Shown here: one piece after another, positions 6,699-60,708 of the stretch | How positions within the stretch are numbered: position 1 is the first letter of the stretch | How the letters are laid out: the number at the start of each line of letters is the position of its first letter | The notes under the pieces: model-generated | Told to the model about the DNA's origin: nothing | Databases searched by the model: none | Seen by the model: the letters and a program-made list of their open reading frames with translations, nothing else | Virus record (IMG/VR): IMGVR_UViG_3300042541_003180 | Location: 21,312-85,311 of that record | Direction: 5' to 3' (one strand) | Length of the DNA: 64,000 nt | DNA from: a virus | Program-made: the position numbers and the translations under genes

Positions 6699-6720
6699 AA
6701 ACCACTCATTTGAGTGGTTT
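6699..6720. terminator. Bidirectional hairpin terminator
   Basis: AAACCACTCA and TGAGTGGTTT pair around a TT loop, with A and T runs on both sides, between convergent genes. Confidence 0.85.
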
Positions 6721-6738
6721 TCTTTTTATATTTAAAGA

Positions 6739-7305
6739 TTAAAGTGGTAATTCTTCTTCCTCTTCTTCCTCTTCTTCTTTTTGACCTTGTGCAGGTTCTT
6801 GAACTTCTCCTTGTGCAGGTTCTTGAGCTTGTCCTTCAACTGGAGTTTGAGCTTGTGGCTCTTCAAATTCTCCTTCTGGAGTTTGACCTTGTGCAGGTGC
6901 TTGAGCTTCTCCTTGTACAGGTGCTTGACCTTGTGCTTGTGGTTCAGCTTGTCCTTGAGTTTGTGCTTGTGGTTCAGTTTGAACTTGTACTTGCCCTTGT
7001 CCTTGAGTTTGAGCTTGAGTTTGACCACCCATTATTGCACCACCAGGAATTTTATCAATATCTAAAAATGTAGTAGTTACATATTTAATTATCTCTTCAG
7101 CAATATCTACGTCTCCAAAGAACTGACGTAAGTTTTTACCAGTAGTATCTTTTACTTTTTTAACATAAGCGTTTATTAAAGACTGAGGTAAATCAATCAT
7201 AGTTTTTACTTTATAAAGATCGTTAACTTGGAAAACAGATTCTTTGATAATCTCTTCTCTATTTTTTTGAATACGAAATTTTTCAAATGCTTTAACGTGT
7301 TTCAT
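6739..7305 (-). CDS. Tagged protein with long Q/P/E-rich repeat tail
   Basis: A 188-aa protein. The N-terminus MKHVKAFEKF is the shared tag, with a possible processing site IKE-S at residues 20-23. A compact domain of about 90 residues follows. Residues from about 97 onward are a degenerate Q-A-Q-T-Q-G-Q / E-P-A-Q-G-Q repeat, ending in a run of glutamates and LPL. The repeat probably grew by slippage of short G/T-rich units (6780-7030). Extended Q/P/E tails are flexible linkers; function is unknown. The opposite strand also appears open here, but only because of the repeat composition. Confidence 0.7.
   Translation of the reverse strand: MKHVKAFEKFRIQKNREEIIKESVFQVNDLYKVKTMIDLPQSLINAYVKKVKDTTGKNLRQFFGDVDIAEEIIKYVTTTFLDIDKIPGGAIMGGQTQAQTQGQGQVQVQTEPQAQTQGQAEPQAQGQAPVQGEAQAPAQGQTPEGEFEEPQAQTPVEGQAQEPAQGEVQEPAQGQKEEEEEEEEELPL
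6780..7030. repeat. Degenerate short tandem repeat in coding DNA
   Basis: Repeated units of the type CTTGTGCAGGTTCTTGA and CTTGTGGTTCAG encode the Q/P/E-rich tail. Because the unit has few stops in any frame, several frames stay open here. Confidence 0.75.
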
Positions 7306-30936: not shown

Positions 30937-30985
30937 TTATCAAGAACTCAAAATTTAATATATAATCAAAACTCAATAAAATTAA

Positions 30986-54097: not shown

Positions 54098-54108
54098 TTA
54101 ATATATAA
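54098..54108 (+). promoter_or_regulatory. Candidate late promoter before the tagged operon
   Basis: TTAATATATAA, 27 bases before the first of four consecutive tagged genes. Confidence 0.48.
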
Positions 54109-54135: not shown

Positions 54136-55842
54136 ATGAAATGGATTAAACCAAGAGATCTTTTTTTAGAAGCAAAAATACGTGACGTTATTTTACCTAG
54201 ACAAGCAATGGCAGTAACAAGTAAATGGGGTGATAGATACCTTGACTATGAAGAAGTTACACCAACAGATAAGATTATACAAGGAACTTGGAAATTATCT
54301 GAGGAAGATAAAAATGAAGTATTAGGTGTTTTCTGTCAAACAGATATGACTGTTTTGTTTGAATTATTCTCAAGTTTACCAGAACAATTTGGAAACGTTT
54401 TAAATCAATCAATTAATGTTGAACTTTTTAGAGAGAATAAAGATACATATTCTAGAATATTTGAAAGTTTTGATATTAGAAAACCTAAATTAGATCAAAT
54501 ACTTGTTATGTTTAGTTCAGTTTTTAGAAAACTATCCATTCCTGATACTATGGCAACTTCTGTTATCTCTAAAGATGCTAATAATAGACCTCTCAGAGAT
54601 GAACAAGGTAATATGATTAGAATTGAAAAACAACCTGGTGATCTAATATTTAGTAATAACTTAATTAATATAAACTCATTTATTTCAGATTATAATGATT
54701 TAGTTGATAAATGTGTTGAGGTTAATGTTGAAGGTTGGTCTGATACTGATAAAATGTCTTCTTCGACACTATTTTCTGATAATAGAAACTTATCACAATT
54801 TATAAACTTCGCTTCTACTAATGAGAATCCAAATTATAAGTTAGACTTTGAAATATTCAATAAAGATATTTTCTTAAAGATTACACATAACCCACAAGAT
54901 ATTTTAAATATGTCGATTTCTAAGTTTTATTCATCTTGTCAACATTTATATAGTGGCGGTTATAGTAGGCAAGTTTTATCTAACGTATTTGATCCAAACA
55001 GTATACCTGCATTTTTGATCTTTGAAACTCCTATTTTCTGGGACGATGAAAAAATTTCTGATCACTTACCTTTATCGAGAATGATTATTAGAAATCTTGA
55101 ATCTTTTGATAATTCGGCACCTACAAAATTATATTTTGATAGAGCTTACCCAGATAGAATGCAAAATAAGATTCAAGAAATTGTTACTAAATATAGTGGT
55201 AACGTAAGTACTGCTGATAGAGGTAGAGATAGATATTTATATACACCCGATATTGATTTTAATGATAACTTAGATACACCTTATCAGGATAGATTATCAG
55301 TAACTACAGGAAGAATGATTGGTAAAAATATTAAAACTTTATATTTGAATCAAATTGGAGATTGGAAAAATGTTAAAGTAGATCCAAATGCAAAAATTAA
55401 AGAACTAATTATTGAGACTACTGAAATTCCAGAAACATTATTAACAATAAATCTTAATCTAGATTGGATTAAATTTAAGTTTATTGAGATACATACACTA
55501 AAAGATTTTGATAGAATCAAAACAACAAATATTGCATTTGATAAATGTAGATTATCTAATAATGTTCTACAAGATATAAATGCTTCTAATCCAGGTATTA
55601 CAAAACTACAAATTATTAGTTGTGATAATGTTGGTTCATTTGATTTCTCTGAGTTTAAATCACTAGAGGAATTACAAGTAATATATACTTTAGATTCAGT
55701 AGAAGATTTAAAAACAATTGTACCTGAGAACTTGAAAAAATTAGTAATCTCTGGAGATTTAGCAACAAAAGAATCTAAGTCAATCTTAGGAGCTTTAAGA
55801 TCTAAAGGAGTAAAAATAGAAATTGTAGGACCAGTAATATGA
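54136..55842 (+). CDS. Tagged protein with leucine-rich-repeat-like C-terminus
   Basis: A 568-aa protein. Tag MKWIKPRDLFLEA, with an FLE-A site. The central domain has a segment (FYSSCQHLYSGGYSRQVLSNVFDPNSIPAFLIFETPIFWDD) with C and several aromatic residues, which recurs in large phage proteins of unknown function. From about residue 405 onward, irregular leucine-repeat units appear (NIKTLYLNQIGDW; IKELIIETTEIP; ITKLQIISCDNV; LEELQVIYTLD; LKKLVISGD). Such repeats bind proteins. Packaging plus a binding surface suggests a host-targeting factor, which is inference. It is the first gene of the tagged operon. Confidence 0.66.
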   Translation: MKWIKPRDLFLEAKIRDVILPRQAMAVTSKWGDRYLDYEEVTPTDKIIQGTWKLSEEDKNEVLGVFCQTDMTVLFELFSSLPEQFGNVLNQSINVELFRENKDTYSRIFESFDIRKPKLDQILVMFSSVFRKLSIPDTMATSVISKDANNRPLRDEQGNMIRIEKQPGDLIFSNNLININSFISDYNDLVDKCVEVNVEGWSDTDKMSSSTLFSDNRNLSQFINFASTNENPNYKLDFEIFNKDIFLKITHNPQDILNMSISKFYSSCQHLYSGGYSRQVLSNVFDPNSIPAFLIFETPIFWDDEKISDHLPLSRMIIRNLESFDNSAPTKLYFDRAYPDRMQNKIQEIVTKYSGNVSTADRGRDRYLYTPDIDFNDNLDTPYQDRLSVTTGRMIGKNIKTLYLNQIGDWKNVKVDPNAKIKELIIETTEIPETLLTINLNLDWIKFKFIEIHTLKDFDRIKTTNIAFDKCRLSNNVLQDINASNPGITKLQIISCDNVGSFDFSEFKSLEELQVIYTLDSVEDLKTIVPENLKKLVISGDLATKESKSILGALRSKGVKIEIVGPVI

Positions 55843-57641
55843 GAAATTTAAAACACATAAAATTATTTGAGGCATTTGATGCTAGAACGTTAAATGCAAC
55901 TTTAAACCACATAAAAACAAAGGCGGATAAAACTAATTTTTTAAACGCTTTAAAAAAGATCTGTAATAAGTTTGATATACCTGAATCTAAATTAGGTGAT
56001 GATTTATTTACTTATTTACCATTTAATAGAGCGTTAAGATTTAACAATGTTATTGTTGAAGACGAGCCTTGTAATGCAGTTGGTGAGTTTATAGCAGGTG
56101 AAAGATGTGATAACGGTAAAGTAAGAAGACCTTGGGGTAGAGGATTTAGAGTTGTTGATTGTGGTACTTGTAAAGGTACTGGAATTAAACCTAAAAAATC
56201 TAATCTATCAATGATTAAATTCTGGTTCGATTCAGAGGGTAAATTTATTGCAACTACTGCTGTGGATGGTGTTTACAGAGAAACTTCTGCGGCTAATACT
56301 ACTGCATTTTCCCAAAATATTAATGATTATGAAGTAGTTAGAAGAATTCCAAAGTCACGTATAAATGAACTTGAAACAGGTGATATTATTGCGTTAGACT
56401 TAGTTAATAATGGTTGGGGACAAACGTATGCACAAGTTGTTAGTTATGTTATGAAAGCTAGTACTTGGTCAGGAACAAAGGTTTTTGCATTACAAAATAC
56501 TTCGAGTTATTATAATAACTATCCTAGAGAAACTAATGGTTGGAATCAAATAGCAAATAGATTTTGGCAAATGAGTCAATCCAGAGTTAATAATATTAAT
56601 CTATTAAAACCAAATGCAAATGTTGGTGGTTTAGATCCTTATGGATATAATACTTCATTTGAATTAGATAACTTCCGTATTAGACCAGTTCAAATGAATG
56701 CTGCAGTAAAAGATGCTAATTTTGCGATTATATTAGATTTTAATAAATTGATGAATTTTGCACCAGCAAGAAAGAAAAGTGAAATTATTTCTGATAGAAC
56801 TGAAATGAAATCAGGTGCTTTAGCTCTTATGTCGGATGAAGATATTAAGAAAGTTAATATTAAAAGATACTTTGATAAAATTGCACAAGGTTTCCAATTA
56901 AAAGGTGAATTAGATGATATTTCTAAGTTTAACAGAATGGCTGCAAGATTGTTAAGTAGAAATGCTTCTTATTTCTTAAATCAATCTGCTAGTGATACAA
57001 TTAGTAGTGGATTAGGAAATATTGCAACTCAGATTTTTAAAGTAATTAGAAAGATTAAAAATGCTGAAAGAGAAGATGCTAAATTAATAGAACAAGGACT
57101 TACACCTACTGCAATTGAATCATTGAAAACCAATTATGATTTCAAAAATGATGTTCAATATATTAATGATAAGTATAAAGATATTTTAGATTGGTCTATT
57201 AAAACAAATGAACATACTAATAAAATTCTTAAATCATTTAGAAAGAAAATCGAAGATGAATCTTCTGAAGAATGGAAAGAAAAAGAGTTTAAAGTATTGA
57301 ATAATATAGATAGATTATCTTTAGAAATTGGTCGTTATATATCTTCTATTACGGTTGAAACATTGGCAGACGTTGAATTCTTACAACAAGAGATTAATTC
57401 AATAAGACAAATGTTTAGATCAGAGAGAACTGGTTTGGGTAGTTTAAGTAATTTCTTTGATAGATTAAGACCTGGTAGTTATTATAACAATACTACTTAC
57501 TTATATTCTAGCTTTACAGATAAGAGAAACTATTTTGGGAATATAAATAATGGTATCACAGTTATGATAAACGTTATTAGAAGAAAACAAGGACAATTGG
57601 CTGAGGCAGAAACTAATGAAACATTTAAAAATATACGATAG
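55839..57641 (+). CDS. Tagged protein with DnaJ-type Cys motif
   Basis: A 600-aa protein. Start MRNLKHIKLFEAFDA, an insert-bearing tag with LFE-A at 9-12. It contains a cysteine cluster: C at PCNAVGE, C in ERCDNGK and DCGTCKGTG, the last of DnaJ zinc-finger type (CxxCxGxG). A basic loop (KVRRPWGRGFRVV) lies between. A conserved-looking domain follows (GDIIALDLVNNGWGQTYAQVV), then a long helical C-terminus. ATGA overlap links it to the preceding gene. It may bind zinc and nucleic acid or protein; no enzyme was recognised. Confidence 0.62.
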   Translation: MRNLKHIKLFEAFDARTLNATLNHIKTKADKTNFLNALKKICNKFDIPESKLGDDLFTYLPFNRALRFNNVIVEDEPCNAVGEFIAGERCDNGKVRRPWGRGFRVVDCGTCKGTGIKPKKSNLSMIKFWFDSEGKFIATTAVDGVYRETSAANTTAFSQNINDYEVVRRIPKSRINELETGDIIALDLVNNGWGQTYAQVVSYVMKASTWSGTKVFALQNTSSYYNNYPRETNGWNQIANRFWQMSQSRVNNINLLKPNANVGGLDPYGYNTSFELDNFRIRPVQMNAAVKDANFAIILDFNKLMNFAPARKKSEIISDRTEMKSGALALMSDEDIKKVNIKRYFDKIAQGFQLKGELDDISKFNRMAARLLSRNASYFLNQSASDTISSGLGNIATQIFKVIRKIKNAEREDAKLIEQGLTPTAIESLKTNYDFKNDVQYINDKYKDILDWSIKTNEHTNKILKSFRKKIEDESSEEWKEKEFKVLNNIDRLSLEIGRYISSITVETLADVEFLQQEINSIRQMFRSERTGLGSLSNFFDRLRPGSYYNNTTYLYSSFTDKRNYFGNINNGITVMINVIRRKQGQLAEAETNETFKNIR

Positions 57642-58233
57642 TTTTCAGAACAAGCAAACATTGATAATAGTTGATGTTCAGAAAAGTTTTCGTAAGTTTT
57701 TTACGGAGATATATTTACATGAATTAAAAAACTATTGTAAGAAGTTTGAATCTGTTTATCAAATTTGGGATAACCACGTCGACGGAAAGAATGTAGATAA
57801 AGATTATCTATATGATGAGAATCCTGACATTCCAGTACATAAAGATTTATATCGATTTCCTAATCAAAAAGATTTGATAGAGAAACGATATAACTATGAT
57901 GTGAATGTAGATTTTTATAAAAATATTTTATCTAAAGAAGTTTATACTGATTTAAAACAAAAAGAAGATAATAAACAATTAAAAAGAGGTGATACCTTCA
58001 ATACTAAAGAAGGTACATTCATAATTTATATTGGTAATAATCATAAATGGTATCACTTACCAAAGAAATTACAAGAACTTTTCACTAAATTAAAAGGACA
58101 AGAAGTTGTAATGGTTGGTGGTTCTGATTCAGAATGTTTCTTAGATGTTGAAACTGCTGCTAAATCATTTGGTGTTAAAATAAAAAGAGATTTCAAATAT
58201 ATCTACTCGGCAAATCATTGTCCAATAAAATAA
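57616..58233 (+). CDS. Tagged isochorismatase/nicotinamidase-like hydrolase
   Basis: A 205-aa protein. Tag MKHLKIYDSFQNK, then the cysteine-hydrolase fold: LIIVDVQKSF with Asp20, IEKRYNYDV with Lys90 as the second triad member, and VVMVGGSDSECFLDVETAAKSFG with nucleophile Cys174. The final KYIYSANHC matches the family's last strand. It lacks a clear nicotinamidase metal D-x-H motif in the expected place (it has WDNHVDG), so the substrate is uncertain. If packaged with the ART-like protein, action on NAD products is conceivable. It overlaps the previous gene by 26 bases. Confidence 0.72.
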   Translation: MKHLKIYDSFQNKQTLIIVDVQKSFRKFFTEIYLHELKNYCKKFESVYQIWDNHVDGKNVDKDYLYDENPDIPVHKDLYRFPNQKDLIEKRYNYDVNVDFYKNILSKEVYTDLKQKEDNKQLKRGDTFNTKEGTFIIYIGNNHKWYHLPKKLQELFTKLKGQEVVMVGGSDSECFLDVETAAKSFGVKIKRDFKYIYSANHCPIK

Positions 58234-58242
58234 TAAATTAAT

Positions 58243-58692
58243 ATGAGATACTTAAAAACTTTTGAAAATTTTGATTTTGATAGAATTGATTCTGATGAAT
58301 CAGATTATTTATATGTAGAAACTTCACAGATACCTAATTCTGGTAGAGGTTTATTTACTGCTATTGATATTGAGAAAGATGAAGTTATCTCAGTTTTTAA
58401 AGGAGAAATACTTTCGGATGAAGAAATAAAATCAAGAACTGAATCAGGTGATGATGATTACTTTATGAATTTACCAAATGGTGATATATTAGATTGTAAA
58501 CAAACTGATTGTTTTGCTAAGTATGCTAATGATGCAGAAGGTTCCGATACTGGATTTAAAAATAATTGTATCATCTCAATGGAAGGAGATGATGTTGTTC
58601 TTGTTGCTACAAGAGATATAGAGTCAGGTGAGGAAATATTTGTTGAGTATGGTGAAAACTATTGGCAACACAATTCTTATAGACTTAGCTAA
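58243..58692 (+). CDS. Tagged SET-domain lysine methyltransferase
   Basis: A 149-aa protein. Tag MRYLKTFENFDFD. The SET core is complete: GRGLFT (34-39, S-adenosylmethionine site), EVISVFKGEIL, FAKYANDAEG (91-100, equivalent to R-F-x-N-H-S with N and D), KNNC (106-109), and EEIFVEYGENYW (130-141) with the catalytic-type tyrosine Tyr136 and the pseudoknot. The size matches minimal viral SET proteins such as the PBCV-1 vSET (119 aa), which is itself virion-packaged. It would methylate lysine on host or phage proteins. Last gene of the tagged operon; its end overlaps the convergent gp25 gene. Confidence 0.8.
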   Translation: MRYLKTFENFDFDRIDSDESDYLYVETSQIPNSGRGLFTAIDIEKDEVISVFKGEILSDEEIKSRTESGDDDYFMNLPNGDILDCKQTDCFAKYANDAEGSDTGFKNNCIISMEGDDVVLVATRDIESGEEIFVEYGENYWQHNSYRLS

Positions 58693-60697: not shown

Positions 60698-60708
60698 TTA
60701 ATATATAC
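60698..60708 (+). promoter_or_regulatory. Candidate late promoter element, very short leader
   Basis: TTAATATATAC, four bases before the ATG of the gp15-like gene. Confidence 0.42.

What the first reader, a model, noticed from the sequence alone, without database searches (positions are those of the whole stretch)
58243..58692. Tagged SET-domain methyltransferase in a bacteriophage
GRGLFT, a FAKYANDA segment, KNNC and EIFVEYGENYW form a complete minimal SET core behind the packaging-type tag. SET proteins are typical of eukaryotes and their viruses; PBCV-1 vSET is carried in the virion and methylates host histone. Delivery of a lysine methyltransferase into a bacterium could modify HU-like proteins, ribosomes or RNA polymerase at once on infection.
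Basis: partly seen in the sequence, partly recalled or inferred. Interest (0 to 1): 0.85.

Follow-up and report, generated by a model that had tools for sequence, protein, structure and literature searches.

The report
Tagged SET methyltransferase in a megaphage
A very large bacterial virus carries a protein-methylating enzyme of a type common in its likely bacterial hosts, with a short front tag like the one phage T4 uses to load proteins into its head, so the enzyme may be injected at the start of infection; no experiment shows this yet.

Summary
The ORF at 58243-58692 (+) is real: 149 aa, complete SET domain (Pfam PF00856, E 1.2e-13, profile 1-105/105), under strong purifying selection (dN/dS about 0.05 among near relatives). 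It lies in an 85-kb fragment of a T4-related megaphage close to LR756502 (642 kb, 'Mahaphage' clade, predicted Bacteroidetes hosts).

Origin: the 'eukaryote-type' framing is wrong. 59 of 118 sampled genomes of the hosts' phylum carry SET genes, and bacterial orthologues at 50-53% identity group with the phage genes. They lack the tag: the phage gene is a bacterial-type SET domain plus an N-terminal tag.

Tag: MRYLKTFENF belongs to a tag on about 150 of 926 LR756502 ORFs and 14 of 70 window ORFs, almost never at internal Met. It resembles T4's capsid-targeting sequence at key positions, and LR756502 has the T4-type portal, head protease and capsid protein. That supports packaging and ejection, but there is no virion proteomics, and the SET tag lacks an exact L/I-X-E cleavage site.

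The NHS motif reads NDA, as in its bacterial relatives. Substrate unknown; one bacterial lineage places the gene beside rlmF, a weak pointer to the ribosome.

Verdict: partly supported; new variant of a known kind.

The parts
58243..58692 (+). Tagged SET-domain protein, 149 aa
   Evidence: PF00856 E 1.2e-13, full profile; conserved in 4 phage types with dN/dS about 0.05
58243..58272 (+). N-terminal tag MRYLKTFENF (capsid-targeting-like)
   Evidence: Tag family: 95 of 926 N-termini vs 6 of 3620 internal Met in LR756502; about 150 of 926 by an unseeded mixture model; absent from bacterial orthologues
58342..58350 (+). GxG motif (GRG, residues 34-36), S-adenosylmethionine-binding loop by homology
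   Evidence: Both Gly invariant in phage and bacterial orthologues; function from family knowledge
58528..58536 (+). N-D-A (residues 96-98) where canonical SET enzymes have N-H-S
   Evidence: Asn96 and Asp97 invariant in phage and bacterial orthologues; NDA also in more distant Bacteroidota SETs
58648..58650 (+). Tyr136, the catalytic-Tyr position of SET enzymes by homology
   Evidence: Tyr136-Gly137 invariant
57616..58233 (+). Tagged 205-aa protein with isochorismatase/nicotinamidase-like motifs, always next to the SET gene in the phages examined
   Evidence: Adjacent in all phage types compared, in either order; Asp20 and Cys174 invariant; family NOT confirmed by Pfam or PDB search
55839..57641 (+). 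Tagged 600-aa protein of unknown function, same cassette
   Evidence: N-terminus MRNLKHIKLFEAF; ATGA overlap with the gene before it
54136..55842 (+). 568-aa protein with a tag variant (MKWIKPRDLFLEA), first gene of the cassette
   Evidence: same gene order in L052 and L053
54098..54107 (+). Promoter-like TTAATATATA ahead of the four-gene cassette
   Evidence: 15 copies in the window vs 2.3 expected, 0 of 100 shuffles reach 15; TAATATATA upstream of 42 of 95 tagged vs 117 of 831 other ORFs in LR756502, P 4e-11

Best explanation
A SET-domain protein lysine methyltransferase of bacterial (Bacteroidota) type, carried by a T4-related megaphage and fitted with an N-terminal capsid-targeting sequence. 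Proposed course: it is made with other tagged proteins, the tag draws it into the prohead core, the head protease may trim the tag, and the roughly 16-kDa enzyme is ejected with the DNA and methylates one or more host lysines at the start of infection. Shown here: the SET domain, its conservation and selection, the bacterial affinity, the tag family, the T4-type head genes of the closest complete relative, and absence of the tag from bacterial orthologues. Inferred: packaging, trimming, ejection, activity. Substrate unknown; a ribosomal or ribosome-associated protein is the best of weak leads, because in one bacterial lineage the orthologue overlaps rlmF.
For: SET. Selection and conservation. 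Bacterial relatives without tag; tree groups phage and bacterial orthologues inside bacterial SETs (fork 93/98). Tag; enrichment of [hydrophobic]-X-E-[SAGN] after the tag, 52 of 95 at residues 6-18 vs 2 of 95 at 31-43. T4 comparison: IPII and IPIII begin MKTYQEFIAEA; in T4 the first 10 residues suffice, targeting rests mainly on residues 4 and 7 and processing on 8 and 10 (PMC9026906); the phage tag is most constrained at 2, 4 and 7. Head genes in LR756502: portal PF07230 1.3e-57, head protease phrog_207 6.1e-28, Gp23 2.7e-25, terminase. rlmF next to the orthologue: PF05971 2.4e-39.
Against: No proteomics. The SET tag reads T-F-E-N, not an exact L/I-X-E site. About 150 tagged ORFs is many for internal proteins, and the tagged set includes a lysozyme/endolysin match and a PQ-loop membrane-protein match, odd for head cargo. 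A sample of 140 kb of LR756501, same clade, has no strict tag. NHS is replaced by NDA, so activity cannot be assumed. rlmF linkage holds only in three near-identical bacterial lineages, not in L088 or L089. The head genes were seen in LR756502, not in the window's own 85-kb fragment.
Confidence: 0.55

Rival explanations
1. The tag is not for packaging. It is another N-terminal signal, for example for a phage compartment, the membrane or translation, and the SET enzyme works inside the infected cell after synthesis.
For: Tagged ORFs are very numerous and include a lysozyme and a PQ-loop membrane-protein match; many carry a promoter-like motif within 10 bases of the start codon, so the tag codons could also have a role in expression.
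Against: Similarity to the T4 capsid-targeting sequence at the functional positions, the T4-type head protease, and a protease-like motif after many tags. Codons of the tag vary (91 different DNA forms for 71 peptide forms over 7 codons), so it is selected as a peptide. None of the tool-identified portal, terminase, sheath, clamp-loader, gp25 or gp15 genes is tagged.
Confidence: 0.25
2. It is packaged but does not methylate host proteins; it modifies virion or phage proteins, or is a catalytically dead binding protein.
For: N-D-A in place of N-H-S; substrate unknown.
Against: GxG, Asn96 and Tyr136 are invariant and the gene is under strong purifying selection. Bacterial relatives share NDA, so it is a subfamily trait and not decay. 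PR-domain enzymes such as PRDM9 are active without NHS (own knowledge, not tested).
Confidence: 0.15
3. It is a eukaryotic or algal-virus SET gene (vSET-like) acquired by a phage, acting on chromatin-like proteins.
For: PDB hits are mostly eukaryotic histone methyltransferases, but solved SET structures are mostly eukaryotic.
Against: Orthologues at 50-53% identity in Bacteroidota and a supported grouping with them; vSET is not among the listed PDB matches.
Confidence: 0.03

Closest known systems
Untagged SET orthologues of Bacteroidota (L061-L063, L088, L089)
   Same: 50-53% identity to the window protein for L061-L063; same GxG, NDA, NN and Tyr-Gly-x-x-Tyr-Trp features
   Different: No phage tag; bacterial genomic context (beside rlmF in L061-L063)
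T4 internal proteins IPI-IPIII with capsid-targeting sequence
   Same: Short N-terminal peptide with Lys2, hydrophobic residue 4, aromatic residue 7 and acidic residue near 8-10, on otherwise unrelated small proteins; T4-type head protease present in the relative
   Different: Cargo is a SET enzyme; tag carried by about 150 ORFs instead of a handful; no proof of packaging; exact L/I-X-E site lacking in the SET tag
SETs of other phages (LR756501, LR756504, LR745208, Vibrio phage GR11A; SET noted in Stenotrophomonas phage Ps15 ORF62, PMC9025141)
   Same: SET domain in a tailed phage
   Different: No N-terminal tag in the four read here, and NHS-type in LR756501, LR756504 and GR11A; different branches of the tree (long branches). 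Ps15 ORF62 was not read
PBCV-1 vSET
   Same: Small single-domain viral SET protein with a YGxxYW-like C-terminus (own recollection)
   Different: Algal virus, canonical histone H3K27 enzyme (PMC3089700); not recovered among best matches; packaging of vSET in the virion was not verified in the text read

Membership tests
SET-domain protein (Pfam PF00856) | Full-length profile match above the curated cut-off | tested here: met
   51.8 bits vs 22.4, positions 1-105 of 105
SET-domain protein (Pfam PF00856) | GxG motif and Tyr of the C-terminal motif | tested here: met
   Gly34, Gly36, Tyr136, Gly137 invariant
SET-domain protein (Pfam PF00856) | Canonical N-H-S-x-x-P-N motif (typical, not required by the profile; absent from PR-type SETs by own knowledge) | tested here: not met
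   Reads N-D-A; shared with bacterial relatives
SET-domain protein (Pfam PF00856) | SET fold | tested here: inconclusive
   Model of low confidence (mean pLDDT 46.9); the listed Foldseek PDB matches are SET domains, best E 5.9e-4, TM about 0.4
SET-domain protein lysine methyltransferase | S-adenosylmethionine binding and lysine methyl transfer | not testable with these tools
   Needs biochemistry
T4-type internal protein with capsid-targeting sequence | N-terminal peptide of about 10 residues shared by unrelated proteins, constrained at residues 4 and 7 | tested here: met
   T4 data in PMC9026906
T4-type internal protein with capsid-targeting sequence | Head protease cleavage site L/I-X-E at the end of the peptide | tested here: inconclusive
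   Enriched across the tag family, but the SET tag has T-F-E; specificity of this protease is unknown
T4-type internal protein with capsid-targeting sequence | gp21-like protease, gp20 portal and gp23 shell in the phage | tested here: met
   In LR756502; not seen in the window's fragment
T4-type internal protein with capsid-targeting sequence | Presence in the mature virion and ejection | not testable with these tools
   Needs virion proteomics
PBCV-1 vSET | Closest relationship to vSET | tested here: not met
   No vSET entry among the best 60 PDB matches; nearest relatives are bacterial. vSET itself was not put in the tree

The most novel reading that the evidence does not exclude
Megaphages of this clade load and eject a large set (of order 100) of tagged proteins through a T4-type capsid-targeting sequence, and among them is a bacterial-type SET lysine methyltransferase that methylates host proteins before any phage gene is expressed.
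Probability: 0.4. Interest if true: 0.85.

Novelty: new variant of a known kind. Interest (0 to 1): 0.6.

Why it matters
If the tag is a capsid-targeting sequence, the ejected protein set of megaphages, none of which had been cultured as of 2021 (PMC9723777), can be read from sequence, roughly one gene in six in LR756502. A SET lysine methyltransferase in that set would point to protein lysine methylation as an immediate step in takeover of a bacterium, and would give a function to trace for the many SET genes of Bacteroidota.

Tried and rejected
Eukaryotic or algal-virus origin: rejected by bacterial orthologues and tree. Structure prediction: two AlphaFold2 runs gave poor models (mean pLDDT 38.3 and 46.9), so the Foldseek result is only a weak consistency check. 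First genome-contig scan used tag-derived patterns and found nothing; the core-only scan worked. rlmF linkage as a general substrate clue: weakened, as L088 and L089 lack it. Isochorismatase-like identity of the neighbour: motif-level only, not confirmed by Pfam or PDB profiles. Literature: no paper found on a SET enzyme in megaphages or on this tag. A relative beyond the four phage types was sought with bacterial SET profiles in viral contigs; nothing new.

Full report
Observation. The ORF at 58243-58692 (+) encodes 149 aa. Pfam SET matches over its whole length, E 1.2e-13, and the best PDB sequence matches are SET enzymes. The window is part of an 85,311-base IMG/VR virus record. The only annotated-collection relative is LR756502.1, 642 kb, with a 65% identical orthologue at 208299-208742. 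Eleven IMG/VR contigs carry orthologues at 95-97% or 70% identity and six more at 68% over the core. Among the nearest, dN is 0.015-0.023 and dS 0.29-0.44, so the protein is under selection.

Which phage. LR756502 is one of the huge phages of Al-Shayeb et al. [quoted passage not shown] it groups with the largest megaphages (PMC9723777). The five phages over 634 kb in that study all fall in the Mahaphage clade with predicted Bacteroidetes hosts (PMC7162821). LR756502 has T4-type head genes: portal PF07230 1.3e-57, head maturation protease phrog_207 6.1e-28 with a sub-threshold S77 match, capsid protein Gp23 2.7e-25, and terminase. The window itself has a gp25-like baseplate gene, a clamp loader and a weak gp15 match next to the SET gene.

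Bacterial origin of the SET domain. A core-only scan of genome contigs found orthologues in three Bacteroidetes assemblies. They start directly at the segment that follows the phage tag and are 50-53% identical to the window protein overall. In these three the gene overlaps the end of a gene whose product matches PF05971 (rlmF-type 23S rRNA methyltransferase; E 2.4e-39 for L061). A search of 396 genomes of that phylum found two further close orthologues, L088 and L089, without rlmF beside them. In a maximum-likelihood tree the phage proteins and these bacterial orthologues form one group (support 93/98) within bacterial SETs; direction and number of transfers are not resolved. SET genes as such are common in the phylum: 59 of 118 genomes. 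Earlier work also argues that bacterial SET genes are not recent eukaryotic imports (PMC3980110).

Catalytic features. GxG, Asn96 and Tyr136-Gly137 are invariant in phage and bacterial orthologues. Where canonical SETs have N-H-S the family has N-D-A; more distant Bacteroidota SETs share NDA or read A-C-D. This is a subfamily trait, not decay, but it means that activity must be shown. Predicted models were poor; even so, the listed Foldseek PDB matches were SET domains.

The tag. In LR756502, 95 of 926 ORF N-termini match a strict tag pattern, against 6 of 3620 internal Met positions. A two-class mixture model without seed finds about 150 ORFs with consensus M-K-[HY]-[LI]-K-x-[YF]-[NKE]-[EI]-F-E. 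The window has 14 of 70 ORFs; samples of LR745206 and LR756504 have 20 of 219 and 4 of 166; LR756501 0 of 168; bacterial loci 0 of 147. Codons vary, so the peptide is what is kept. A hydrophobic-X-E-[SAGN] motif follows the tag in 52 of 95 (residues 6-18) against 2 of 95 further in. T4 IPII and IPIII begin MKTYQEFIAEA. In T4 the first ten residues suffice for packaging, targeting depends mainly on residues 4 and 7, processing on 8 and 10, and gp21 cuts after L/I-X-E (PMC9026906). The parallel is close, but it is a comparison and not proof. The SET tag itself (KTFE-N or KTFE-S) has no exact L/I-X-E site. The families recognised among the tagged ORFs are single cases: lysozyme, GNAT, HNH, PQ-loop, SET and a few weaker ones. 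The tool-identified portal, terminase, sheath, clamp loader, gp25 and gp15 genes are not tagged.

Context. The SET gene closes a four-gene cassette of tagged ORFs (54136-58692) with overlapping or closely spaced genes, behind a TTAATATATA motif. This motif occurs 15 times in the window against 2.3 expected and lies upstream of tagged ORFs in LR756502 more often than of others (42 of 95 vs 117 of 831, P 4e-11). In all phage types compared, the SET gene is next to a tagged 205-aa protein with isochorismatase-like motifs.

Other phage SETs. LR756501, LR756504, LR745208 and Vibrio phage GR11A have SET domains without the tag, on other branches. One paper lists a SET domain protein in Stenotrophomonas phage Ps15 (PMC9025141). 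A SET gene in a phage is therefore not new; a SET gene carrying a capsid-targeting-like tag was not found described.

Conclusion. Best reading: a bacterial-type SET lysine methyltransferase adapted by addition of a capsid-targeting-like tag for delivery with the genome. The domain, its bacterial affinity and the tag family are shown; packaging, ejection, activity and substrate are inferred.

Noticed in passing
L016-L049 (LR756502, whole record) and the window: About 150 of 926 LR756502 ORFs, mostly of unknown function, share one N-terminal tag; this may be a sequence-readable set of ejected proteins in megaphages and is larger than the SET finding itself.
   Followed up: partly
window 57616-58233; L013:19352-19963: Tagged 205-aa neighbour with VDVQ and GGSDSEC motifs like isochorismatase/nicotinamidase hydrolases; always beside the SET gene in the phages compared; family not confirmed by profile search.
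   Followed up: partly
window, 15 sites, e.g. 54098-54107 (+), 60698-60707 (+), 30955-30964 (+): TTAATATATA, a promoter-like motif, 15 copies vs 2.3 expected; in LR756502 often within 10 bases of the start codon, so transcripts could be leaderless.
   Followed up: partly
L027:16272-18368: The LR756502 head protease ORF (699 aa) runs on into a repeat region (units like SEYIAENLDKNI), perhaps a protease-scaffold fusion.
   Followed up: no
LR756501.1:692231-692566 and LR756504.1:605185-605493: Untagged NHS-type SET genes in two other huge phages.
   Followed up: partly
LR756501.1 and LR756503.1: Two records of identical length (735,411 bases) with the SET match at the same coordinates; they may be the same genome.
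   Followed up: no
L061:3370-4166, L062:3600-4237, L063:3598-4237: Bacterial SET orthologue overlapping rlmF (ATGA overlap in L061 and L062), suggesting a coupled role in one lineage.
   Followed up: partly
window 6714-7305: Low-complexity Lys/Leu-rich repeat region within a tagged ORF (6739-7305, -), with long spurious ORFs on the other frames.
   Followed up: no
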